A stretch of 64,000 bases of DNA from positions 2,542,001 through 2,606,000 of the forward strand of contig NZ_VIWU01000001.1 in assembly GCF_007994075.1 (NCBI RefSeq). Reading direction: 5' to 3'. A program made the translations under genes and the position numbers. This document shows, one piece after another, positions 52,543-64,000 of the stretch (position 1 is its first letter; each line of letters begins with the position of its first letter). This stretch comes from Pseudonocardia hierapolitana (GTDB lineage: Bacteria; Actinomycetota; Actinomycetes; Mycobacteriales; Pseudonocardiaceae). Under the pieces are notes generated by a model, which saw nothing but the letters and a program-made list of their open reading frames with translations, was not told the origin of the DNA and searched no databases.

Positions 52543-54501
52543 TCAACCCGTCCGTGTGACCGGCGATCCCAGCCCCAGCACGCGCCCCCGGGCCCGGCCG
52601 CGGTCGAAGCGGCGCTGGCGGAAGCTGTGCACCTCCTCCAGGACGACGGCCAGCAGGATCAGCGGTATCCCGATCAGGCCGATGACGTTCAGCGGCGGCA
52701 GGCTCAGGTCGTTGATGCCGGCGAGGTCGACCTCGCCGCGCACCGACTCCAGCGCGTGCACCTGCGAGTCCGTGAGGAGGAACGGGCTTCCGGTGCCGGT
52801 GTTGACGCCCACGTCCAGGGTCTCGATGGCGACACCGGTGGCCTGCACGAGATCGGGTGAGCTGGAGCTGATCCCCGCCTCCGAGGCGTTGATCGTCGTG
52901 TGGCTGATCGTGGTGGCGGCCTCGGCGTCGATCCCGGTGGCGCCACCGGTGATCAGCCCACCGACGATCCGCGTGCCCGGGCCGGCCGTGCGCACGGCGT
53001 CGGATTCGACGTTGTCGGCCACCAGCCCCGTGATGACGACGCCGGTCGTGTCCGGCTTGGCGACGACACCGTCCCGGCCGCCGGCAACGGTCAGGTCGGT
53101 GAGCCGGGCGTCGTGCGCGCCGCGCTCGATCCGCACCCCCGTGCTCGAGTCGCGGACCTGGACCCCTTCGAGGATGGTCCGGCTGCCTCCGATGGAGATG
53201 CCCGCCACCTGGGCGCCCTGGAAGGTCGAGTCGATGATGCGGAACCCGGTGGTGCTCTTCTCGACCGACGCCCCCCAGCGGCCGTCGAACGTGCGGACGC
53301 GGTCGAGCGTGATCCCGCTGCTGGCCACGTGGGCGAACACGCCCACCCGCTGGCCGGTGGCCGTGAAGTCGGTGACGACGACGTCCTTGCTGCCGCTGAT
53401 CTCGAGCCCGCCGTCCTGGTCGCCCGTGGTGGTGACGGCGGTGACGCGAGCGCCCGTCTGCCTCTTGACCGCGAGGCCGTAGCCGCCGTTCCCGGACGTG
53501 GCGATGCCGGTGATCGGGCGATCCGAGCTCTCCCCGGTCACCAGGACGCCGTCGCCGCCGTTGCGTTCGGCGCGGATCCCGGTCAGCGTCGAGGCCCGGT
53601 CGCCTGCCAGGACGAGGCCGTTGCCCCCTGACTCGCTGACGGAGACGTCGGTGAGCCGCACGCCGTCCGAGCGCCGCAGCTCGAGGCCGCTGCTGCCCCG
53701 CTGCACTGCGACCCGGGTCAGGAAGCCGGTGCTGCCGGGGTTGAACAGCACCGCGGCTCGGCCGTTGTCGTCGGCTGCGGCCGGAGCGCCGAGGTCGCTG
53801 ACGATGAGGTCGGTGCCCTCCAGCCGACCGCCGGACGAGGCCACGATCGACGGGCGACCCGCGGCGGTGGCGGGCACGGCCTGCCCGGTGGCGGGATCGA
53901 CGGAGGTGACGGTGAGGCCGGCGAGGGTGAGCGCTCCGCCGCCGGTGTGGATGGACGCCGCGGCGGCGGACGTCGCTCCACCGGCCAGTCGCAGGGTGTG
54001 CACGCCGGGGCCGGCGACGTCGAAGGTGGTGCCCCTGGTCAGTACGACCGTCGCAGACAGGGTCGCGACGCCCTCGCCGATGGTCAACCAGCTCGCAGGC
54101 AGGGCGCGATCGAGCTCGGCCAGGTCGACGGACGTGCCACCGAACGGGACCCGCCGGCTCAGCCGCCCGGCGACGAGCACGTCGAGGGAGGTGGGACGCA
54201 CCGTCACCATCCGGCTCGGGCGGCCCCGCGACGCCCAGGCCGCCGGGCCGCGGACCTGCGCGGTCGTCGTCGGCGCAGGCGGCGACTGCGGGGGCACCTC
54301 GTCGACGGCCGCCTCCATCTCGGGGTCCTCCGTGCCGGGATCTCCCTCGGCCGGGAGCGCCGCGGAGTGCACGGCCTGCGCGGCCGTTCCGGCAGGCGCG
54401 GCCAGCTGCCACACCGTCGCAGCCCCGGACACGAGGCTGACCCCCACGGCCAGCGCCAGAGCGAGCACGCCCCTCCCGCGTCGGCCCTTCCTGGCGGTCA
54501 T
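52543..54501 (-). CDS. Secreted right-handed parallel beta-helix protein with C-terminal membrane anchor
   Basis: 652 residues. An N-terminal signal/anchor helix (VLALALAVGVSLVSGAATVW) is followed by a Pro-rich linker and a beta-helix of about 15 coils (residues about 200-590) with recurring patterns such as GLELRRSDGVRLTDVSV and NGLVLAGDRASTLTGIRA. Near the end a helix (NVIGLIGIPLILLAVVLEEV) and a basic tail (RQRRFDRGRARGR) anchor it. The fold occurs in alginate C5-epimerases (AlgG) and polysaccharide lyases, but the AlgG DPHD motif is not present. It overlaps the GT2 gene by ATGA, so a role in making or modifying that polymer is likely. Confidence 0.85.
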   Translation of the reverse strand: MTARKGRRGRGVLALALAVGVSLVSGAATVWQLAAPAGTAAQAVHSAALPAEGDPGTEDPEMEAAVDEVPPQSPPAPTTTAQVRGPAAWASRGRPSRMVTVRPTSLDVLVAGRLSRRVPFGGTSVDLAELDRALPASWLTIGEGVATLSATVVLTRGTTFDVAGPGVHTLRLAGGATSAAAASIHTGGGALTLAGLTVTSVDPATGQAVPATAAGRPSIVASSGGRLEGTDLIVSDLGAPAAADDNGRAAVLFNPGSTGFLTRVAVQRGSSGLELRRSDGVRLTDVSVSESGGNGLVLAGDRASTLTGIRAERNGGDGVLVTGESSDRPITGIATSGNGGYGLAVKRQTGARVTAVTTTGDQDGGLEISGSKDVVVTDFTATGQRVGVFAHVASSGITLDRVRTFDGRWGASVEKSTTGFRIIDSTFQGAQVAGISIGGSRTILEGVQVRDSSTGVRIERGAHDARLTDLTVAGGRDGVVAKPDTTGVVITGLVADNVESDAVRTAGPGTRIVGGLITGGATGIDAEAATTISHTTINASEAGISSSSPDLVQATGVAIETLDVGVNTGTGSPFLLTDSQVHALESVRGEVDLAGINDLSLPPLNVIGLIGIPLILLAVVLEEVHSFRQRRFDRGRARGRVLGLGSPVTRTG

Positions 54502-55769
54502 GCCGGAATCCTTTCTCGCTCCGTGGCCGGCACGGGCAGTTCGAGCGCGCCGGGCGGCGCGGGGATCGGTACGGCGGCGACCGGGTCGCTCCCGGTGCGG
54601 ACGACCTCGCCGTTCTCGACCGCGACCTGGCGGGTGCCCCATCGCTGGGTGCGGATGGTGACCAGTGCGTAGATCTTGATGAAGGCCATCACCCACGAGA
54701 CCGCGACGTAGCCGAGCACGAAGAAGAGGGACGAGGGGCGCCTGCGGATGTGGGGAAGGAGCTTGGCGGCGCGGCTGAGCTGCCACCACGCCACCAGCAC
54801 CACGCAGAAGATCCAGTTTCCCTGGAGGAGGGAGTAGACGAAGAAGCCCGGGCCGAGCAGCAGCGTGAAGCCGGACAGCCCCTTGTCGACCATCGTGTAG
54901 GCGAGGAACGGGTGGCGCCACACCCACGGCTTCGACAGGGCCCGCAGGTCGGAGCGCCAGGTGTTGCGGGCCCAACGCAGCCGCTGGCGGAAGAACACCC
55001 TCCACCCGGTGGGGAAGGTGGACAACACCTCTGCGGTGCGCTGCATGTAGGTGAGGTGGCCCCGCTCCAGGGTGAGGGTCGTGAGCCGCTTGTCGTCGCC
55101 GGACAGGCAGGGAACGCCCCAGAACGTCTCGGCCATGAACTCCTCCTCGATGTCGAGGAGGATGCGGCGGCGGTACACCGCGGTCCGCCCCGACAGGCAG
55201 GACACGGCCCGGCCGAGCCGGGACTGGGCGGCGTTCTCGTCGAAGTAGCGGTGGTCGAGGAACATGTCGGTGATCCGCGCCAGGAACCCGCTGCTGCCGT
55301 AGACCGACTGCCGGGTGCCGACCCCGCCGATGCGCGGGTCGGCGAACGGCTTGCGCACCTCGTCCGCGACGTCGGGGGCCCAGATGGTGTCGGAGTCCAC
55401 CAGGGCGACGAGCTCGGTGCGGGCCGCCCGCCAGCCGCGCCGGAGCGCGTCTCGCTTTCCCGGGACGTCGGTGATGATCACCTCGACGGGGTAGCGGGCG
55501 GCGACGTCCTGGCAGATGGTGTCGGAGACGTCCACCACGAGGACGATCTGGTCGACGCGGTTGGCGAGCCACGACTCGATCGCGGTGGCCAGGATCTCGG
55601 GGTCCTCCTGGTACACCGGCACGACGATCGCCAGCGATGCGGGGTGGTCGCCGGCGATCGGCGTGTACGTCACGGCGGGGATCCGGCGGATCAGCCAGGC
55701 CCCCCACCGGATCAGCCCGAGCACTCCCAGCGGAGTGCCGAGCACGTAGTAGACCAGCGGCAGGTTCAT
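54498..55769 (-). CDS. Processive GT2 glycosyltransferase (hyaluronan synthase/Alg8-like)
   Basis: 423 residues. An N-terminal helix, a GT-A domain (VVPVYQEDPEILATAIESWL, VALVDSDTIW with the DxD, CLSGDDKRLT, and RQRLRWARNTWRSD as the QxxRW-type motif) and four or five C-terminal helices match membrane processive synthases. Such enzymes extend a polysaccharide and pass it across the membrane. The gene sits between a nucleotide-sugar dehydrogenase and a beta-helix protein, which points to a uronic-acid-containing polymer. Whether the product is hyaluronan-like or alginate-like cannot be told. Confidence 0.9.
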   Translation of the reverse strand: MNLPLVYYVLGTPLGVLGLIRWGAWLIRRIPAVTYTPIAGDHPASLAIVVPVYQEDPEILATAIESWLANRVDQIVLVVDVSDTICQDVAARYPVEVIITDVPGKRDALRRGWRAARTELVALVDSDTIWAPDVADEVRKPFADPRIGGVGTRQSVYGSSGFLARITDMFLDHRYFDENAAQSRLGRAVSCLSGRTAVYRRRILLDIEEEFMAETFWGVPCLSGDDKRLTTLTLERGHLTYMQRTAEVLSTFPTGWRVFFRQRLRWARNTWRSDLRALSKPWVWRHPFLAYTMVDKGLSGFTLLLGPGFFVYSLLQGNWIFCVVLVAWWQLSRAAKLLPHIRRRPSSLFFVLGYVAVSWVMAFIKIYALVTIRTQRWGTRQVAVENGEVVRTGSDPVAAVPIPAPPGALELPVPATERERIPA

Positions 55770-55771
55770 GC

Positions 55772-56743
55772 CTACTCGCTCTGCGCTTCCTGCAGCTCCT
55801 TGTCACCGTGGGCAGCGGCCCGCAGCTGGGCGTGGTCGGCGGCCCGCTCCGCGATGTCGGCCGTGTCGATCTCGTGGTCGACGATCTCGGCCAGCCGGTC
55901 GTTGACCTCCACCACGGCGGACAGCAGCGGCATGTCCACCCCGACGGTGTCGGCGAAGCCGAGGAAGCCCTGGGTGTCCTTGGGCAGGCAGACCCCGCCG
56001 TAGGGGGCACCACCGCGGATGCCGTACTCGGGGTTGATCGAGCCCTCGGCCGAGCGGGCCACGGTGGCGGCGATCGGGTCGAGGTCCAGGCCCAGCTTCT
56101 GGGCGACCAGCCACATCTCGTTCCAGAAGCTGATCTTGGTGGCGTTGAAGATGTTGTGCGCGCACTTGATGAACTCGGCCTCGGCCGGGTCGGAGAAGGT
56201 GCGCAGCTCGCCACCGAAGGGGGACAGCAGCTCCCGCAGCCGCTCGACGTTCTGCGGGTCGCGGCTGGCGATGATGGTCATCCAGGGGTTGGCGAAGTCC
56301 TCGGCGGCCGAGACCGCGCGCAGGAACTCGGGGTTGGAGGCCAGCCCGAAGCCCTCGTTGGCGACCATCCCGGAGTTCTCCTCCAGGGTGGTCTTGACCA
56401 GGCCCTCGGTGGTGCCCGGGGGAACGGTGGAGCGCACGACGACGGTGTGGCGCACGGGGGAACCGGCGAGGGCCTTGCCGACCGATGCGGTGCCGGCGCT
56501 GAACGCCGACAGGTCGTAGCGGTGCCCGTCGTTCGGCGTCGGCAGGGTCAGGAAGATCAGCGACTCGGGCTCGCCGGACAGGTCGATCTCGGTGCGGACG
56601 TCCAGTCCACGCGCAGCCAGCTCGGCCACCCGCGGGGCCGAGATGTCGATGAAGGTCACCTTGTGGCCGGCGGCGAGGAAACCCTCGCCCGTGGCCGCGC
56701 CGACCACGCCCGAACCGACGATGAAGATCCGCGAAGACTCCAC
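55772..56743 (-). CDS. Short UDP-glucose/GDP-mannose 6-dehydrogenase
   Basis: 323 residues from the GTG at 56743, which follows GAGAGG by 7 bases. The N-terminal NAD domain (IFIVGSGVVGAATGEGF) and central dimerisation domain (EFIKCAHNIFNATKISFWNE) are complete and the catalytic cysteine is in GGVCLPKDTQG. The C-terminal nucleotide-sugar-binding domain of about 100 residues is missing; typical family members have about 430. The reading frame ends cleanly, so this may be a natural short form. It should supply a UDP- or GDP-uronic acid for the GT2. Confidence 0.85.
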   Translation of the reverse strand: MESSRIFIVGSGVVGAATGEGFLAAGHKVTFIDISAPRVAELAARGLDVRTEIDLSGEPESLIFLTLPTPNDGHRYDLSAFSAGTASVGKALAGSPVRHTVVVRSTVPPGTTEGLVKTTLEENSGMVANEGFGLASNPEFLRAVSAAEDFANPWMTIIASRDPQNVERLRELLSPFGGELRTFSDPAEAEFIKCAHNIFNATKISFWNEMWLVAQKLGLDLDPIAATVARSAEGSINPEYGIRGGAPYGGVCLPKDTQGFLGFADTVGVDMPLLSAVVEVNDRLAEIVDHEIDTADIAERAADHAQLRAAAHGDKELQEAQSE

Positions 56744-56806
56744 GGGGATACCTCTCACATGCTTGGAGCCGGCCCACCGGGGAGCCGGACGAGGATGGAA
56801 CGGACA

Positions 56807-56816
56807 TGAAGCTTCA
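56807..56816. promoter_or_regulatory. TGAAGCTTCA palindrome (possible MarR site)
   Basis: The 10-bp palindrome TGAAGCTTCA lies 64 bp upstream of the dehydrogenase start, on the operon side of the gap. It carries the same TTCA/TGAA arms as the 16-bp sites at 56938 and 57004 but without the 4-base centre. Confidence 0.4.
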
Positions 56817-56937
56817 GTCAGCGACAACTGGCTGGGCGGCTCTCCGTTGGGCCGCAGGCATGGCCGGGTCGGGCGGCGACGGTCTACCCGATCGCCCCGA
56901 CGAGACCGGACCCCCGCGCCGTTACTTCAACCATGTA

Positions 56938-57041: not shown

Positions 57042-57569
57042 GTGGAGACCACCGAGCAGACCTGGCTGACCGAGGAGGAGCTACCAACCTGGCTCACACT
57101 CGTCGGCGTGCTGATCAAGCTGCCGGCGGCGCTCAACGACCAGCTGCAGCGCGATGCCGGGATGAACCACTTCGAGTACTGGGCCCTCATGGCGCTGGCC
57201 CTGCACGAAGGCCACTCCGTGCGGATGAGCGAGCTCGCGGTGCTCACCAACGGCTCGCTGTCACGACTGTCCCAGGTGATCTCCCGGCTGGAGAAGCGCG
57301 GCTGGGTACGCCGCGCACCGGACCCCACCGACGGCCGCTGCACCCTCGCCATCCTCACCGGGGACGGCTGGGAGCAGTTCGTCGGCTCCTTCGAGGCGCA
57401 CTCGGGAGAAATCCGTCGGCTGGTCTTCGATCCGTTGACCAAGGCACAGGTACGGCAGCTCCGCGAGATCGGCCACCGCATCCTCCGGGCCGTCAACCCG
57501 GACGGCCCGGACCGCCCATCGGGCTTCAAGCCGGAGATCGGTGGCTTCTGCCCGGACACCGTCTGCTGA
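57042..57569 (+). CDS. MarR family transcriptional regulator
   Basis: 175 residues from the GTG at 57042. The winged helix-turn-helix is typical: MSELAVLTNGSLSRLSQVISRLEKRGWVRRAPDPTDGRC, of which LSQVISRLEKRGWVRR and DPTDGR are the recognition helix and wing. The gene is divergent from the exopolysaccharide operon, and three palindromic sites with TTCA/TGAA arms lie between them, so I infer control of that operon and itself. It is 68 bp upstream of the first P450 gene and could also affect that cluster. Confidence 0.93.
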   Translation: METTEQTWLTEEELPTWLTLVGVLIKLPAALNDQLQRDAGMNHFEYWALMALALHEGHSVRMSELAVLTNGSLSRLSQVISRLEKRGWVRRAPDPTDGRCTLAILTGDGWEQFVGSFEAHSGEIRRLVFDPLTKAQVRQLREIGHRILRAVNPDGPDRPSGFKPEIGGFCPDTVC

Positions 57570-57637: not shown

Positions 57638-58819
57638 GTGACGATCACCGCGCGGCGCCACGAGGCCGGCCTGCTGTGGGCCAGCCGCCCCAGCCTGGCC
57701 CTGCTGCTGCACGCCGCCCGCTTCGCGCCCCCGATCGCCCGGATCCCCCGGCTGGGCTGGATCATCCGGGACCCGATGCTCTGTCGGGAGATCCTCAACG
57801 AGCACCGGCACTTCACGCTGCTCGGCGAGGGCGGGGTCGGCCACCTGTGGGCACAGGTGCTCGGCGACTACGTCACCGAGCTCTTCGACGGGCCCGGTCA
57901 CCTCCGGCTGCGGACGAAGGCCCGCGACCTGTTCACCACCAAGACCTCGGCGGACCTCGTCGCCGAGGCGTTCGACGCGCCGCTCGACGCGCTGACCGCG
58001 CGGCTGCGCGTGGGCGGGACCGTGGACGTCGCGGACACCTCCCGCGTGCTCGTCGGCCGGATGCTCGCCACCCTGCTGGGCCTGCCGCGGGACCGTCCCG
58101 ACGACGAGTTCCGCGCGATCTTCGCCGAGGGCGAGCGGCTGGCCGCCGTGGCGCTCCACACCGCGGCCTCCACCGTGCTCGCCCCGCACGCGGTGGCGGA
58201 GGCCAGGGGGATCGTGGAGCGGATGACGGCCGGCGTCCCCGCCGGCTACCGCGACGCGCCACCGGGCACCCTGCTGGGCCGCTGCCGCGAGCTGGGCCTG
58301 GGCGTGGAGGTGACCCGGGGTCTGGCCGGCCTGCTGCTCGTGGCCGGCACCGAGACCGCCGCCACCGCGATGACCCGGGCCGTCGCGCTGCTGCACGACC
58401 ACCGCCTCGTCGACGCGCTGCTCGCCGATCCGGACCGGATCGACGACGTGGTGCGCGAGGTGCTGCGCGTCGTCACGCCGGCGCCGGTCATCGGCCGGCA
58501 CGTCAGCGCGGACGTCGAGATCGGGAGGCACCTGCTGAAGGCGGGCGAGCAGGTCATGCTGCTGACCTACGCGGCCAACAACGCGGCGGGCGGATTCGAC
58601 CCGAACCGCGCCTACGTGCCCGAGACCCGGCAGCTGTGGTTCGGCGGCGGCAGGCACCTGTGCCTCGGCGCCGCACTGGCGAAGGCCGAGATGGCCGCGT
58701 TGCTGCGGGCGCTGCTCCGCGCCGGCCGGCCGTGGCGGGTCGTGCACCGCAGGCCCGCGCGCCGGGTGCTCATCCCCCGGTACGAGTCGTTGCAGATCAC
58801 GCTGACCGGGAGGCCGTAG
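57638..58819 (+). CDS. Cytochrome P450
   Basis: 393 residues. The heme-binding loop WFGGGRHLCLGAALA places the ligand at Cys342, the I helix has LLVAGTETAATAM (AGxET) and the K helix has EVLR (ExxR). It is a soluble class I bacterial P450 that needs ferredoxin and a reductase, neither encoded here. The start is GTG; TAGCGT nine bases upstream and no ribosome site suggest a leaderless message. It opens a six-gene cluster with stop-to-start spacing of zero or less, so it likely oxidises a product of the cluster. Confidence 0.92.
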   Translation: MTITARRHEAGLLWASRPSLALLLHAARFAPPIARIPRLGWIIRDPMLCREILNEHRHFTLLGEGGVGHLWAQVLGDYVTELFDGPGHLRLRTKARDLFTTKTSADLVAEAFDAPLDALTARLRVGGTVDVADTSRVLVGRMLATLLGLPRDRPDDEFRAIFAEGERLAAVALHTAASTVLAPHAVAEARGIVERMTAGVPAGYRDAPPGTLLGRCRELGLGVEVTRGLAGLLLVAGTETAATAMTRAVALLHDHRLVDALLADPDRIDDVVREVLRVVTPAPVIGRHVSADVEIGRHLLKAGEQVMLLTYAANNAAGGFDPNRAYVPETRQLWFGGGRHLCLGAALAKAEMAALLRALLRAGRPWRVVHRRPARRVLIPRYESLQITLTGRP

Positions 58820-59815
58820 ATGGGAACGCGGTTGGCCGGGGTTGCCGTGCACCTGCCGGAGCACTGCCTGACCAGCGCCGAGGTGGAGGCGCGGATCGGG
58901 CCGTACGTCCCGCCCGCCGGGTTGCTGCACCGGCTGACGGGCATCCGGTCCCGGCACGTGATGGCCGGCCGCGAGCAGGCGTCCGACCTCGCCGTCGCCG
59001 CCGCGCGCAAGCTGCTCGCCGAGACGGGGACGGCCGCGGAGGAGATCGACCTGCTGGTGTTCGCGTCGGCGAGCCAGGACATGGTCGAGCCGGCCACGGC
59101 GCACATCGTCGCGGCGGGGCTCGAGCTGGGCTGCCCCGTGATGGACGTCAAGAACGCCTGCAACAGCGTGCTCAACGGCATCGAGGTGGCCGACGCCCTC
59201 ATCGCGACGGGCCGCTACCGCACCGTGCTCGTCGCCTGCGGTGAGGCGCCGTCGCGGGCCGTGCGCTGGAACGTCGGGTCCCTCGGCGAGTACCTGCGCG
59301 CCTTCCCCGGCTACACGCTCGGCGACGCCGGTGCCGCGCTGCTGTTGACGACCGGCGCGCCGCCTGGCACCGGCGTGCTCGGCGCGGCGTTCACCGCGGA
59401 CTCGCGGCACTGGGACGTCGGCACGTTGCCAGCAGGCGGCTCGCGGCACCCGCGCGACCCCGAGCGGACCTACTTCGAGATGGACGGCGCGCGGCTCAAG
59501 GACGCCTTCCTCGGCCTCGGCACCGGCGTGCTCGACGAGACGCTCGCGGAGCTCGGCCTGCGCTGGGACGACTTCGCGGTGGTGTGCGTGCACCAGGTGT
59601 CGTTGCCGTACCTGGAGGTGTTCGCCGAGCGGGCCGGGGTGCCGGCCGAGAAGCTCGTCGTGACGTTGCCCGAGCACGGCAACGCCGCCTCGGCGAGCCT
59701 CCCCCTGCAGCTGGCCACCGCGCTGGAACTGGGCCGCTGCGGCCCCGGCGACCTGGTGGCGCTGGTCGGCCTGGCCGGCGGAGTGAGCATGGGCGTCGTG
59801 GTGGTGCGGCTGTGA
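58820..59815 (+). CDS. KAS III-like condensing enzyme (OleA/FabH type)
   Basis: 331 residues, near the length of OleA. The Cys-His-Asn triad is Cys114 (DVKNACNSVLNG), His258 (VHQVS) and Asn288 (EHGNAAS). The LASDLAVAAARK-like N-terminal segment (EQASDLAVAAARKLL) and HQVSLPYLEVF fit the thiolase-like superfamily. OleA joins two acyl-CoAs to a beta-ketoacid; FabH primes fatty acid synthesis. The neighbouring OleC- and OleD-like genes favour the first. The ATG follows the P450 stop with no gap. Confidence 0.88.
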   Translation: MGTRLAGVAVHLPEHCLTSAEVEARIGPYVPPAGLLHRLTGIRSRHVMAGREQASDLAVAAARKLLAETGTAAEEIDLLVFASASQDMVEPATAHIVAAGLELGCPVMDVKNACNSVLNGIEVADALIATGRYRTVLVACGEAPSRAVRWNVGSLGEYLRAFPGYTLGDAGAALLLTTGAPPGTGVLGAAFTADSRHWDVGTLPAGGSRHPRDPERTYFEMDGARLKDAFLGLGTGVLDETLAELGLRWDDFAVVCVHQVSLPYLEVFAERAGVPAEKLVVTLPEHGNAASASLPLQLATALELGRCGPGDLVALVGLAGGVSMGVVVVRL

Positions 59816-60558
59816 GCCTCGCGGTGATCATCCCGGCCTTCGACGAGGCGTGCGGCATCCCCGCCACCCTGCGCGCCCTCGCCGCGCAGCACGACCGGGA
59901 CTTCCACCTCGTGGTCGTCGACAACGCCTCCACCGACGGCACGGCCGCGGTCGTGCGCGACACGGCGGCGGCGCTCGGGCTGCAGCTGGAGATCGTGGAC
60001 GAGCCCGAGCGCGGCACCGGCGCCGCCGCCGATACCGGGATGCGGCACGCCATCGCACGTGGAGCCACGCTGCTGGCCCGCACCGACGCCGACTGCCTGC
60101 CCGCACCGGACTGGACGGCCCGCATCCGCGCTGCCCACGCCGACGGCCTGGACCTGATCGCCGGGCGGCTGCGCCCCCGGACCGACGAGGGGGTGCCGGC
60201 GTGGAAGCGGGCCGTGCTGGTTGGCGCGGTCGGCGTCGCCACGGCGTTCGGCACCGTGCGCCCCGGCAACCGCGACCCCGCCCACCTCGGCCCCTACGTG
60301 ATGACGCCGGGCTGCAACATGGCGATCTCCGCCGCGCTGTACGTGCGGGCCGGCGGGTTCCCCCGCACCCGGATCCAGGACCTGCACGAGGACCGCGCGC
60401 TGGTCAACGCCGTCCGCAGGCTCACCACCCGCTACGGCCGCCGGTCCGACGTGGTGGTGTTCGGGTCGAGCCGCCGCGTCCGGGCATGGGGTCTGGTCAG
60501 GACGCTCGCCTGGTACGCCGACCACCGGTACTGGCCCGAGCACGTGGACATCCGATGA
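59812..60558 (+). CDS. Soluble GT2 glycosyltransferase
   Basis: 248 residues from a GTG overlapping the condensing-enzyme stop (GTGA). The GT-A fold is clear: LAVIIPAFDEACGIPATLRAL, VVVDNASTDGTAAVV, and RTDADCLPAP as the DxD motif. There is no obvious C-terminal membrane anchor except a hydrophobic stretch near residues 125-140 (AVLVGAVGVATAFG). It probably transfers one sugar onto a cluster product or a lipid carrier. It is coupled on both sides by 4-base overlaps. Confidence 0.88.
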   Translation: MSLAVIIPAFDEACGIPATLRALAAQHDRDFHLVVVDNASTDGTAAVVRDTAAALGLQLEIVDEPERGTGAAADTGMRHAIARGATLLARTDADCLPAPDWTARIRAAHADGLDLIAGRLRPRTDEGVPAWKRAVLVGAVGVATAFGTVRPGNRDPAHLGPYVMTPGCNMAISAALYVRAGGFPRTRIQDLHEDRALVNAVRRLTTRYGRRSDVVVFGSSRRVRAWGLVRTLAWYADHRYWPEHVDIR

Positions 60559-61712
60559 CCCGGGGGACGGAAGCCGGCGGGGACGGTGGGAACTGGGAGC
60601 GGCGCGTCCAGCTCGCGGCCCACCCGCTCGCGTACCCGCTGGTCCGGGCGCTCGCACTGGTCGGGCCGGTGGTGCGGGTCCCGCGTGTCGGGGTCGTGGT
60701 CAGCGACGCGACGCTCGCCCGCGCGGTGCTCACCGACACCGCGGCGTTCACCAAGACCGGCCCCGGATCGCCTGCCGATCTGTGGACGCCGGTCGTCGGG
60801 CCGTCGGTGCTGCTCAACATGGAGGGCGCCGAGCACGCCGAGCTGCGGCGCAGGCTCGCGGACCTGTTCACGCCGCGCGCCGTGGCGGACCTGGTCGCCC
60901 GGTCGTCGGCATCGCTCACGATCGGGCGGCCGCTCGACGTCGTCGCGCTGACCAGGCAGCTCGCCGGCGCCGTGATCGCCGAGCTCGTCGGCCTCGACCC
61001 GGACCTCGCGGCGGCCCCCGCCTTCGCCGCAGCCACCGCGGTGACCGGGCAGGTGCGGCTCGCCCGCCCGCGGCTCACGCCGTCACAGGTCGCCAGGGCC
61101 CGCGCCGCCCTGGCCGAGCTGACCGAACCGGCCGATGTCGCCTACCGCGCGGGCGATCCGGTGACCGTGCCCGGGCGGATGCGCTCGCTCGGCCTCTCCG
61201 AGGACGAGTCACGCGGGGCGGTGGCGGCGTTCGTGCTGACGGGCACCGAGACGCTGGTGTCGTTCGTACCCCGCCTCGTCGCGCTCCTGTTCGACACCGG
61301 CTGGCTGGACCGACTGGCCGTCGAACCGTCCCGCGCGGACGACGTGATCGGCGAGGCCCTGCGCGTCACCGTGCCCTCGCCGGTGATGCTGCGCAGCGTT
61401 TCCGCACCAGCCCGGATCGGGACCCTCGCCGTGCGGCCGGGCGAGCGCGTCGTGATCTCGACGGTGTCCGCGGCCCGCGCGCTCGGCGGGTTCGACCCGG
61501 ACCGCCCGCACCCGCCGCACCTGCGCCGGCTGTGGTTCGGCGCCGGGCCGCACTTCTGCCTCGGCATGCCGCTCGCGATGGCCGAGATCCACACGGTGCT
61601 GGACGCCGTTCTCGCCGCCCACCGCGATCGGCCGTGGCGGATCGTCCGGCGCCGGGCCGCCCGTGGTGTGCTCGTTCCGGCCTACCGAGAGCTGGTGCTC
61701 GATGCGGCATGA
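60555..61712 (+). CDS. Cytochrome P450
   Basis: 385 residues from an ATG overlapping the GT2 stop (ATGA). The heme loop WFGAGPHFCLGMPLA has Cys335 and the K helix has EALR. The I helix reads FVLTGTETLVSF, so the first residue of the usual (A/G)GxET motif is Thr instead of Ala or Gly, while the acid-alcohol pair is kept. It is only distantly similar to the first P450 of the cluster, so the two are unlikely to be a recent duplication. A second oxidation of the cluster product is inferred. Confidence 0.92.
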   Translation: MTRGTEAGGDGGNWERRVQLAAHPLAYPLVRALALVGPVVRVPRVGVVVSDATLARAVLTDTAAFTKTGPGSPADLWTPVVGPSVLLNMEGAEHAELRRRLADLFTPRAVADLVARSSASLTIGRPLDVVALTRQLAGAVIAELVGLDPDLAAAPAFAAATAVTGQVRLARPRLTPSQVARARAALAELTEPADVAYRAGDPVTVPGRMRSLGLSEDESRGAVAAFVLTGTETLVSFVPRLVALLFDTGWLDRLAVEPSRADDVIGEALRVTVPSPVMLRSVSAPARIGTLAVRPGERVVISTVSAARALGGFDPDRPHPPHLRRLWFGAGPHFCLGMPLAMAEIHTVLDAVLAAHRDRPWRIVRRRAARGVLVPAYRELVLDAA

Positions 61713-63219
61713 CCTCCTGCAGCAGATCCTCGCCGCGACCGACGAGCACGGCCCCGCACCCGCGCTGAGCGGGCCGCGCGACGCGACGCTGACCCACGCG
61801 CAGCTCGGCGCCCGGGTCCGCGCCGTGGCGCACCGGCTGCGGGCGGCCGGCTTCGGGCCGGGCGAGCGGCTGCTGTTCTCCGTGCGCCCGTCGCCGGACG
61901 CCGTCGTGCTCGCGCTCGGCACGGTCGCCGCCGGGGGCACGGTCGTGTTCGTCGACCCCGGCGCCGGCGGGGAGCTGTTCGCGGCCAGGGTCGCGCTGGT
62001 CGAGCCCCGCTGGGCGGCGGCCGAGTCGGTGCTCTACGCCGCGAGCGCGCCGGGACCGCTGCGCTCGCTCGCCCGCCGCCGCGGCGTGCTGCTGCCGGAC
62101 TTCGGCGCGCTCCCCGTCCGGCACGTCCGCGCGGGTCGGTGGCTGCCGGGCGTGCCGCGCGGCGCTCTCCCGCTGCGCGACCTGACCCGCCCGGTCGCAC
62201 GGCCCGACCCGATCCCATCCGCTCCCGATCAGGACGCAGCGATCGTGCCGACCGCGGGGACGACGGCCGCGCCGAAGGTCGTGGTCCACACCCGCGCCTC
62301 GCTCGGCGCCGCCCTCGGCGTGCTCGCCACCCGGTGCGCTCTCGCGCCCGGCACCCGCGTGCACACCGACCAGCTGTTGCTGGGTCTCCCCGCGCTGGTC
62401 GCCGGGGCGCACTGGACGATGCCGCCGTACGGGTTCGCCCCGGCCGCGCGCCCGGCCGAACTCGCCCGCGGCATGTCCGGCGCCACGCACGCGTTCCTCG
62501 TGCCGGCCGACCTGGCCGGGGTGCTGGACGCCGTGGAGCGTGGTGAGGTGGCGCTCCCGGCGTCGCTGCGGCAGGTGCTGCTCGGGGCCGCCCCGGTGCT
62601 GCCGCCGCTGCTGCGGCGGGCGACGGCCCTGCTGCCAGGGGTGGAGTTCCTCGCCGTCTACGGGATGACCGAGATCCTGCCGGTCGCGGTCGCGACGGCG
62701 CAGGAGAAGCTCGCGTACGCCGGGCCGGGCGACCTGATCGGCGCCCCGTTGCCCGGTGTGGCGGTGCGGGTGGACGACCGCGGCGAGCTGCACGTCGCCG
62801 GCCCGAACATGGCCCGCGGCTACCTCGGCCGCCCGGATCCGACCGAGCACGCCACAGGGGACCTCGCCCGCCTGTCCGGCGGCCGGATCGTGCTCGTCGG
62901 CCGCGCCAAGGACATGATCATCCGGGGCTCCACCAACATCTACCCCGGCCTCTACGAGCCCGCGGTCGCCGCGCTGCCCGGGGTCGCCGCGGCGCTGATG
63001 GTCGGCGTCGCGGACGACATCGGCGACGAGCGGGTGGTGCTCGCGATCGTCCCTGCCCCCGACGCCGGGCGCGACCTGGCCGACCGGGTCCGCGCCGCGC
63101 TGCCGTCCCTGATCGACACCGCCGCGCTGCCGGACGAGGTCGTCGTGCTCGACGCCCTCCCGGTGGCGGGGCGCACCCGCAAGCCGGACCGCGCCGCCGT
63201 ACGCGCCATGTTCGCCTGA
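61702..63219 (+). CDS. AMP-dependent ligase (OleC / beta-lactone synthetase-like)
   Basis: 505 residues from the ATG at 61702, overlapping the P450 stop by 11 bases. Adenylation motifs are present but divergent: AIVPTAGTTAAPKVVV (phosphate loop), YGMTEILPVAVAT, TGDLARL, GRAKDMIIRGSTNIYPGLYE and the late lysine in GRTRKPDRA. The TE-x-LP sequence after the A5 motif and the region VGAPLPGVAVRV-like (IGAPLPGVAVRVDD) resemble OleC, which turns beta-hydroxyacids into beta-lactones. An acyl-CoA ligase is the alternative. The OleA- and OleD-like neighbours make OleC the better guess. Confidence 0.82.
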   Translation: MRHDLLQQILAATDEHGPAPALSGPRDATLTHAQLGARVRAVAHRLRAAGFGPGERLLFSVRPSPDAVVLALGTVAAGGTVVFVDPGAGGELFAARVALVEPRWAAAESVLYAASAPGPLRSLARRRGVLLPDFGALPVRHVRAGRWLPGVPRGALPLRDLTRPVARPDPIPSAPDQDAAIVPTAGTTAAPKVVVHTRASLGAALGVLATRCALAPGTRVHTDQLLLGLPALVAGAHWTMPPYGFAPAARPAELARGMSGATHAFLVPADLAGVLDAVERGEVALPASLRQVLLGAAPVLPPLLRRATALLPGVEFLAVYGMTEILPVAVATAQEKLAYAGPGDLIGAPLPGVAVRVDDRGELHVAGPNMARGYLGRPDPTEHATGDLARLSGGRIVLVGRAKDMIIRGSTNIYPGLYEPAVAALPGVAAALMVGVADDIGDERVVLAIVPAPDAGRDLADRVRAALPSLIDTAALPDEVVVLDALPVAGRTRKPDRAAVRAMFA

Positions 63220-64000
63220 TGCGGATCGCCGTGACCGGAGCGACCGGGTTCGTCGGGGGCGCCGTGGCCCGGGCCGCGGCCGCGCACGGCTGGACCGTGC
63301 ACGGCTACGGCCGCGCCCGCTGGGACATCACGAAGGGACCGCTGGCCGATCCACCGCCGGTCGACGCCGTCGTGCACGCCGCCGCGGCCGTCATCGACTG
63401 GGGCCCGGCCGCCCCGATCCGGCGGGCGAACGTCGACGGCACCCGCAACGCGCTCGCGTCGTTCCCGGGCGCGCGGTTCGTGCACGTCTCGACGGCCAGC
63501 GTCTACGACCCGTTCGTCCCCACGGTGAATGCGCCGGAGCCGGCCGCGCCCGTCGCCCGCTACCTCACGGAATACGGGGCGTCGAAGGCCGCGGCCGAAC
63601 GCCTGCTCGCCGGGCGGCCCGACACGGTCGTACTGCGCCCGCACGCCGTCTACGGGCCCGGCGACCCGACCCTGCTGCCCCGCCTGCTCGGCGCGATCCG
63701 CGGCCGCACGCTCGTGCTCCCCGGGGACGCACGCACCCGGCACACGCTCACCGCCGTCGGCACGCTCGTCGACGCCGTGCTGCGCGCCTGCGATCGGGCC
63801 GCCCCGGCCGGGGTCTACAACATCGGCGACGCCGAGCCCGTCGTGCTCGGCGATGCGGTGTCGGCGGTGCTGGCCGAGCGCGGCCTCGACGTCGAGATCC
63901 GCTACGTGCCGGTCCGCGCGGCATGGGCGCTCGCCGCCGTCACCGAGTACGCCGCCCGGCTGGCCCGCAGGCCCGGGCCTCCGCGGCTGACCCGCTACGC
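63219..64000 (+). CDS. NAD-dependent epimerase/dehydratase (OleD-like), 3' partial
   Basis: At least 260 residues, cut by the window end. The start overlaps the ligase stop (TGATG). Features are the Rossmann motif GATGFVGGAVARA, the HAAAAVIDWG strand, STASVYD, the catalytic YGASK, and TVVLRPHAVYGPGDPTLLPRLL, which closely follows the pattern of OleD and 3-beta-HSD-like reductases (LRPH-x-x-x-GPGD). OleD reduces the 2-alkyl-3-ketoacid made by OleA. A role as a sugar dehydratase for the GT2 is the alternative. Confidence 0.85.
   Translation, partial: MRIAVTGATGFVGGAVARAAAAHGWTVHGYGRARWDITKGPLADPPPVDAVVHAAAAVIDWGPAAPIRRANVDGTRNALASFPGARFVHVSTASVYDPFVPTVNAPEPAAPVARYLTEYGASKAAAERLLAGRPDTVVLRPHAVYGPGDPTLLPRLLGAIRGRTLVLPGDARTRHTLTAVGTLVDAVLRACDRAAPAGVYNIGDAEPVVLGDAVSAVLAERGLDVEIRYVPVRAAWALAAVTEYAARLARRPGPPRLTRY

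What the first reader, a model, noticed from the sequence alone, without database searches (positions are those of the whole stretch)
57638..64000. OleACD-like cluster with two P450s and a glycosyltransferase: a candidate new beta-lactone or olefin pathway
Seen: six plus-strand genes with stop-start overlaps or zero gaps, encoding P450, KAS III-like enzyme with C114-H258-N288, GT2, P450, an AMP ligase with an OleC-like TE-x-LP segment, and an OleD-like dehydratase with LRPHAVYGPGD. Known: OleA condenses two acyl chains, OleD reduces the ketoacid, OleC closes a beta-lactone, and OleB decarboxylates it to an olefin; nocardiolactone clusters use the A, C and D functions. Inferred: without an OleB in view, the product could be a stable beta-lactone or related beta-hydroxyacid, further oxidised twice and possibly glycosylated. 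The mix with P450s and a GT2 is not one I can match to a described pathway.
Basis: partly seen in the sequence, partly recalled or inferred. Interest (0 to 1): 0.9.

Follow-up and report, generated by a model that had tools for sequence, protein, structure and literature searches.

The report
Probable glycosylated beta-lactone gene cluster
A six-gene actinobacterial cluster carries relatives of the three enzymes that join two fatty acids and close a reactive four-membered beta-lactone ring, plus two oxidising P450 enzymes and a sugar-transfer enzyme; its five-gene core recurs in fixed order in many soil actinobacteria, and a similar cluster was already predicted in print to make a sugar-bearing beta-lactone, whose product we could not find reported.

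Summary
Six co-directional genes (P450a, KAS, GT2, P450b, AMP ligase, SDR) lie at 57638-64106; the last ends 106 bases past the window. The KAS carries the OleA general-base motif (Glu-Pro) and falls with OleA against 20 other KAS III proteins (99/96). The SDR is OleD-like. The ligase falls with OleC against 15 other ligases of the genome, but its profile scores are ambiguous. No oleB is linked, and no hydrolase of the genome reaches the similarity seen between OleBs. One locus of the same family holds a KAS of this clade beside oleB, oleC and oleD. The core KAS-GT2-P450b-ligase-SDR is in fixed order in 74 of 80 named loci; P450a is optional. In all 14 Arthrobacter/Paenarthrobacter loci the core sits between adk and map in the secY operon. 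Best reading: two acyl chains joined, reduced, hydroxylated, glycosylated and probably closed to a beta-lactone. The idea is in print: Smith et al. (mBio 2020) proposed it for Actinoplanes atraurantiacus. New here are the two-P450 subtype, its gene order, the breadth of the core and the bridging locus. Product unknown.

The parts
57042..57569 (+). MarR-type regulator gene, 68 bases upstream of P450a; may be co-transcribed; start codon uncertain; not found in the 80 relatives
   Evidence: Pfam MarR_2 and MarR; no MarR match in the 80 loci at 1e-8
57638..58819 (+). P450a, accessory cytochrome P450 with haem Cys342, Glu239-Thr240 and Glu274-x-x-Arg277
   Evidence: Pfam p450 47.7 bits; a relative in 40 of 80 loci, 36 divergent upstream and 4 convergent downstream, plus a piece cut by a contig end in L076; residues
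58820..59815 (+). KAS III enzyme in the OleA role: Cys114, His258, Asn288 and Glu90-Pro91
59812..60558 (+). GT2, soluble family-2 glycosyltransferase with DxD (Asp92, Asp94) and Glu193-Asp194
   Evidence: Pfam Glycos_transf_2 73.2 bits; conservation; AlphaFold2 model with mean pLDDT 89.8, GT-A fold relatives
60555..61712 (+). P450b, core cytochrome P450 with haem Cys335, Glu232-Thr233 and Glu267-x-x-Arg270
   Evidence: Pfam p450 37.4 bits; in 78 aligned relatives Cys335 and Glu232-Thr233 are invariant, Glu267 in 75, Arg270 in 77; model
61702..63219 (+). AMP-forming ligase in the proposed OleC role (beta-lactone closure or acid activation)
   Evidence: Pfam AMP-binding 138.4 bits and AMP-binding_C 31 bits; tree; ambiguous profile scores
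63219..64000 (+). SDR in the OleD role (reduction of the 3-keto group), Tyr119 and Lys123; the gene runs on to 64106 outside the window
   Evidence: best NCBIfam model is OleD, 106 bits, below its cut-off of 580

Best explanation
The operon encodes an oleACD-type pathway without oleB. The KAS (OleA role) joins two fatty acyl-CoAs by a non-decarboxylative Claisen condensation, with Cys114 holding one chain and Glu90 as base. The SDR (OleD role) reduces the 2-alkyl-3-keto acid to a 2-alkyl-3-hydroxy acid. P450b, and here also P450a, hydroxylates an alkyl chain, and GT2 puts a sugar on a hydroxyl. The OleC-related ligase adenylates the acid and most likely closes a beta-lactone, which persists because no OleB removes it. 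Shown by sequence: gene content, order, intact catalytic residues, placement of KAS and ligase beside OleA and OleC, no linked OleB. Inferred: each reaction, the chain lengths, the sugar, the positions, the order of steps and the lactone itself.
For: KAS: Glu90-Pro91, Cys114, His258 and Asn288 are conserved at 97% or more in 80 relatives; Glu at that site in 0 of 20 FabH and other KAS III rows; these 20 are split from 15 OleA plus 14 cassette-clade rows with 99/96 support. SDR: OleD is its best model, it is the best OleD match of its genome, profile match to OleD 4.1e-59. Ligase: with 12 OleC rows against 15 other ligases of the genome, 100/99. Context: locus L197 has a KAS of this clade (48% to the window KAS, up to 50% to other cassette KAS) beside an OleB (49% to the OleB of L122), an OleC (up to 45%) and an OleD (up to 55%). 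No OleB: seven OleB queries find nothing at 1e-10 in L009, L010 and the 80 relatives. GT2 and P450b travel with the three in 74 of 80 loci. Smith et al. propose the same product class for Actinoplanes.
Against: KAS scores equally with the FabH and OleA-type models and passes neither cut-off. The ligase scores 127 bits with a general ligase model and 119 with the OleC family model, whereas three OleC rows score 344-598 against 144-156; single-sequence profile scores do not favour OleC. The SDR tree is weak (cassette 95/77, OleD 48/88). Smith et al. could not show condensation by the Actinoplanes OleA: the little purified protein did not react with C8-C16 acyl-CoAs. No product is known.
Confidence: 0.55

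Rival explanations
1. Same first steps (OleA and OleD roles) but no lactone: the product is a glycosylated 2-alkyl-3-hydroxy fatty acid, a mycolate-like glycolipid or surfactant, and the ligase activates a chain or the finished acid as acyl-AMP or acyl-CoA.
For: The ligase is on a long branch away from OleC (1.19 changes per column), fails the OleC profile comparison and keeps an AMP-binding_C match that the two OleC-containing proteins scanned lack. In Arthrobacter the core lies in the ribosomal-protein operon, which suits a growth-linked lipid.
Against: The ligase still groups with OleC against 15 other ligases, carries TEILP, and KAS and SDR relatives occur with true OleC (L197).
Confidence: 0.28
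2. Not Ole chemistry: the KAS makes another carbon-carbon bond (for example a decarboxylative condensation), and the ligase supplies an aromatic or other acyl group that is then oxidised and glycosylated.
For: Level scores with FabH models and similar identity to OleA (32%) and to one FabH (32%).
Against: Glu-Pro motif in 356 of 356 listed homologues (capped lists), tree with OleA, OleD-like SDR, L197 context, no carrier protein or malonyl-transferase gene seen in the operon.
Confidence: 0.13
3. Olefin pathway with an unlinked OleB elsewhere in the genome.
For: The genome has many alpha/beta hydrolases; the best is 37% identical over 275 residues to the L122 OleB (93 bits).
Against: That hydrolase scores at most 95 bits against seven OleBs, below all 21 pairs among those seven (115 bits or more). 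No OleB-like match in the 80 relatives. Hydroxylation and glycosylation do not suit a membrane hydrocarbon (inference).
Confidence: 0.04

Closest known systems
Actinoplanes atraurantiacus OleA / glycosyltransferase / OleC / P450 / OleD region (Smith et al., mBio 2020, PMC7064751)
   Same: Same five enzyme kinds, no oleB reported, same proposed product class. Five homologues named Actinoplanes carry the Glu-Pro motif and are 48-50% identical to the window KAS.
   Different: That sequence was not obtained here. Micromonospora pattaloongensis (L198), of the same family by my recall, has KAS-GT2-ligase-P450-SDR, the order in which the paper lists the genes; the window has KAS-GT2-P450b-ligase-SDR and a second P450.
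oleABCD olefin clusters (X. campestris, Micrococcales)
   Same: OleA motif and triad, OleD-like SDR, OleC-related ligase.
   Different: No oleB or oleBC fusion; GT2 and P450 added; KAS about 32% identical to X. campestris OleA.
Nocardiolactone / lipstatin clusters (two-KAS oleACD type; this make-up is recalled)
   Same: OleA, OleC and OleD functions without OleB.
   Different: L138, a locus of that make-up (two KAS, one without Cys/His/Asn, with OleC and OleD, no OleB match), has no GT2 or P450 match of this kind; the window has one KAS. The named NltA-NltD and Lst proteins were not obtained.
FabH and other KAS III enzymes
   Same: Fold, triad, level profile scores.
   Different: No glutamate at the OleA site in 20 of 20 rows and a separate side of the tree.

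Membership tests
OleA condensing enzymes | Cys-His-Asn triad | tested here: met
   Cys114, His258, Asn288, conserved in 80 relatives at 97% or more and aligned with X. campestris OleA
OleA condensing enzymes | Glutamate at OleA position 117 followed by proline (all but two of the OleAs of PMC7064751) | tested here: met
   Glu90-Pro91; the offset between chain and published numbering is inferred; alignment
OleA condensing enzymes | Groups with OleA rather than FabH in a tree | tested here: met
   99/96 split of 29 OleA and cassette-clade rows from 20 others; the two are separate clades
OleA condensing enzymes | Score above the cut-off of NF006720 (the model that the OleA of L122 passes; my identification with OleA) | tested here: not met
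   169.6 bits, cut-off 285
OleA condensing enzymes | Non-decarboxylative condensation of two acyl-CoAs | not testable with these tools
   needs the enzyme
OleC beta-lactone synthetases | Groups with OleC rather than other ligases | tested here: met
   100/99 against 15 ligases of the same genome; outgroup chosen by OleC-model hits in one genome
OleC beta-lactone synthetases | OleC family model clearly best | tested here: not met
   119 bits against 127 for a general ligase model; for the relative L050 the olefin beta-lactone synthetase model gives 79 bits, cut-off 900
OleC beta-lactone synthetases | Closes a beta-lactone | not testable with these tools
   needs the enzyme
OleD reductases | OleD model is the best match | tested here: met
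   106 bits, next non-OleD model 46.6 bits
OleD reductases | Score above the OleD cut-off of 580 bits | tested here: not met
   106 bits; none of 296 genomes, which include oleABCD carriers, passes it either
oleABCD olefin clusters | OleB present | tested here: not met
   no match of seven OleBs at 1e-10 in L009 and L010, which reach 26 kb past the window; genome-wide best 93 bits, below all OleB pairs
Nocardiolactone/lipstatin type | Two KAS subunits (recalled) | tested here: not met
   one KAS in the operon; besides it the genome has FabH and two weak partial matches
OleA-GT-OleC-P450-OleD type of Smith et al. 2020 | The five enzyme kinds together without oleB | tested here: met
   description read
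OleA-GT-OleC-P450-OleD type of Smith et al. 2020 | Homology and gene order shared with the A. atraurantiacus cluster itself | not tested
   sequence not obtained; related Micromonosporaceae have another order (L198)

The most novel reading that the evidence does not exclude
The five-gene core defines one widespread, chemically unknown class of glycosylated, hydroxylated 2-alkyl-3-hydroxy lipids (beta-lactone or open acid) of actinobacteria, kept as a unit and, in Arthrobacter and Paenarthrobacter, carried inside the ribosomal-protein operon between adk and map: a growth-linked cell lipid or signal rather than an occasional antibiotic.
Probability: 0.3. Interest if true: 0.75.

Novelty: new variant of a known kind. 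Interest (0 to 1): 0.45.

Why it matters
Beta-lactones are rare, reactive natural products behind useful enzyme inhibitors, and only a few oleACD clusters have known products (PMC7064751). If this reading holds, a common, compact and complete-looking gene set would give a glycosylated branch of that chemistry, testable by expressing five or six genes. If the ligase proves not to close a lactone, the cassette would show that OleA/OleD chemistry is also used to build mycolate-like glycolipids by another route than the mycolic-acid pathway.

Tried and rejected
Similarity alone does not settle the enzyme families: NCBIfam scores and profile comparisons put the KAS about as near FabH as OleA, and single-sequence profile scores put the ligase about as near ordinary ligases as OleC. 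KAS trees with only FabH, OleA and cassette could not say which two are closest, so other KAS III proteins were added.

Both P450s matched the model of P450-derived glycosyltransferase activators weakly; rejected as the reading because both keep the haem cysteine and the acid-threonine pair. A hydrolase downstream of the core in 14 loci (family 14) was considered as an OleB; OleB queries found no match in those loci. PDB sequence and fold searches for GT2 and P450b gave the fold but no substrate.

Paper searches gave one relevant prior description, PMC7064751. PMC7158056 was seen in passages only and PMC10262491 in one irrelevant passage. A paper on a Nocardia beta-lactone pathway, looked up by a recalled DOI, is not held. 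An attempt to get the A. atraurantiacus KAS through homologue lists failed; its name did not appear in the listed 120 of each search, where names are partly cut.

Rows dropped: L133, L136, L137, L139 and L140 (no KAS or ligase match) and L129 (no KAS match) were not used as Ole references; L126 (another ligase was picked), L128 and L134 are missing from the OleC rows; the second KAS of L138 was left out; ten outgroup rows were left out for size, L215-L217 as repeats, and 9 of 23 cassette rows were not used. The P450a set of 47 probably holds 7 P450b sequences, since 40 loci have a separate P450a. Gene calls are heuristic.
Full report
What is there. The window ends inside an operon of six plus-strand genes: P450a (57638-58819), KAS (58820-59815), GT2 (59812-60558), P450b (60555-61712), an AMP-forming ligase (61702-63219) and an SDR (63219-64106; the last 106 bases lie beyond the window). 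The junctions are 0 bases or overlaps of 4, 4, 11 and 1. A MarR-type gene (57042-57569, start uncertain) lies 68 bases upstream. The window lies in a single-contig genome of 8.86 Mb. After the SDR come a molybdopterin oxidoreductase on the minus strand and an AraC-type gene; the ORF list of the 26 kb past the window (filtered by codon G+C) showed no further pathway gene by eye.

The condensing enzyme. Pfam gives KAS III; the NCBIfam FabH-type and OleA-type models score it level (169.3 and 169.6 bits), both below cut-off. That NF006720 is the OleA model is my reading, because the OleA of L122, next to an OleB, passes it at 423 bits. Cys114, His258, Asn288 and Glu90-Pro91 are conserved at 97% or more in 80 relatives. 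The glutamate aligns with that of X. campestris OleA, named residue 117 and general base in PMC7064751. None of 20 FabH and other KAS III rows has Glu there, and those 20 are split from 15 OleA and 14 cassette-clade rows with 99/96 support; the cassette clade has 100/99 and OleA 97/91. The pattern EPA[TVS] is in all 356 distinct homologues listed by three capped searches.

The ligase and the SDR. In a tree 23 cassette ligases fall with 12 OleC rows against 15 ligases of the same genome, 100/99. TE-x-LP is in 17 of 23, 11 of 12 and 0 of 15 of these rows. Against this, the window ligase scores 119 bits with the OleC family model (NF006754) and 127 with a general model, three OleC rows score 344-598 against 144-156, it is only the 13th best NF006754 match of its own genome, and single-sequence profile scores (OleC 165-300, other ligases 180-286) do not favour OleC. 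The SDR has OleD as best model at 106 bits (cut-off 580, which no match in 296 genomes passed), is the best OleD match of its genome and aligns to OleD by profile at 4.1e-59; its tree is weak.

No OleB. Seven OleB sequences find nothing at 1e-10 in L009, L010 and the 80 relatives. One of them finds none of 1047 heuristically called genes in 81 loci at 1e-3. The best hydrolase of the genome, unlinked, has 37% identity and 93 bits to one OleB and at most 95 bits against the seven, below all 21 pairs among them (115 bits or more).

A bridging locus. In G397, of the same family as the host, a KAS of this clade (48% to the window KAS, basal in the clade) stands next to an OleB-like hydrolase (49% to the OleB of L122), a 642-residue protein without a family match, an OleC (up to 45%) and an OleD (up to 55%) (L197). 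This ties the clade to the Ole pathway by context; it is one locus.

Distribution. One scan of named genomes gave 154 relatives of the KAS and kept the best 80 loci. 74 of 80 have KAS, GT2, P450b, ligase and SDR in that order on one strand. Of the other six, L060, L076 and L082 end at a contig end, L069 and L090 have no SDR match, and L044 has no P450b and SDR match. Hosts include Saccharothrix, Lentzea, Pseudonocardia, Saccharopolyspora, Actinomadura, Catellatospora, Cellulosimicrobium, Arthrobacter and Streptomyces. P450a is in 40 of 80 (36 divergent upstream, 4 convergent downstream) and as a cut piece in L076; in none of them does it stand as in the window, same strand and upstream. In the host's order 5 of 121 genomes, the host included, match the KAS at 1e-60; of the four others L196 has the full core, L197 is the bridging locus, L198 has another order and L199 has only KAS, P450b and SDR, two of them in pieces. 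In all 14 Arthrobacter/Paenarthrobacter loci the core lies between adk and map, after secY (families checked in L025).

The tailoring enzymes. Both P450s keep the haem cysteine and the Glu-Thr pair, and nearly always ExxR. P450b gave a good model (pLDDT 86) nearest to EryK, CYP109 and, lower, P450BioI. GT2 has DxD and Glu-Asp motifs and a confident GT-A model (pLDDT 89.8), nearest to WrtF fucosyltransferase, PcManGT and TarS at TM 0.60-0.66. Neither result tells the substrate. No redox partner or carrier-protein gene was seen in the operon.

Mechanism. Two acyl chains are joined by the KAS, reduced by the SDR, hydroxylated by P450b (and P450a), glycosylated by GT2 and activated by the ligase, most likely to a beta-lactone. 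The last step is the least certain, because the ligase is OleC-related but fails the OleC profile test; an open glycosylated hydroxy acid is the main rival.

Prior description. Smith, Robinson, Molomjamts and Wackett (PMC7064751; sections 6, 10, 11, 12 read; passages) report OleA, a glycosyltransferase, OleC, a P450 and OleD in Actinoplanes atraurantiacus without oleB and propose a hydroxylated, glycosylated beta-lactone. Its OleA was active on a p-nitrophenyl ester in cells, but the little purified protein did not condense C8-C16 acyl-CoAs. That sequence was not obtained here. Micromonospora pattaloongensis (L198) has KAS-GT2-ligase-P450-SDR, the order in which the paper lists the genes, and five homologues named Actinoplanes are 48-50% identical to the window KAS. 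The window therefore seems a sister subtype with another order and a second P450. In some searches I saw no paper on this subtype or its product; most subscription papers are outside that library.

Verdict. Real and conserved; the idea is already in print as a prediction; the subtype, its breadth, the bridging locus and the ribosomal-operon position add to it. Interest 0.45.

Noticed in passing
L023-L027, L029, L030, L033, L036, L037, L040, L048, L053, L071: In all 14 Arthrobacter/Paenarthrobacter loci the five-gene core is inserted between adk and map downstream of secY, inside the ribosomal-protein operon.
   Followed up: partly
L197:4826-11607: oleB-like hydrolase, unidentified 642-residue protein, KAS of the cassette clade, OleC and OleD in a row: an olefin-type cluster with a KAS of this clade.
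   Followed up: partly
L138:6944-11922: Two KAS (one without Cys, His and Asn), OleC and OleD in a genome of the same order, like the two-KAS beta-lactone clusters.
   Followed up: no
window 52543-56827 (minus strand): UDP-sugar dehydrogenase, membrane-type GT2 and a right-handed beta-helix protein in a row, likely an exopolysaccharide cluster.
   Followed up: no
L199: A core without GT2 and ligase matches, with KAS and P450b matched in two pieces each: a decaying or badly assembled copy.
   Followed up: no
L127:12835-13254: A MarR-type gene 49% identical to the window's MarR stands near an oleA / oleBC / oleD cluster of another genome, although no MarR match was found in the 80 cassette loci.
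   Followed up: no
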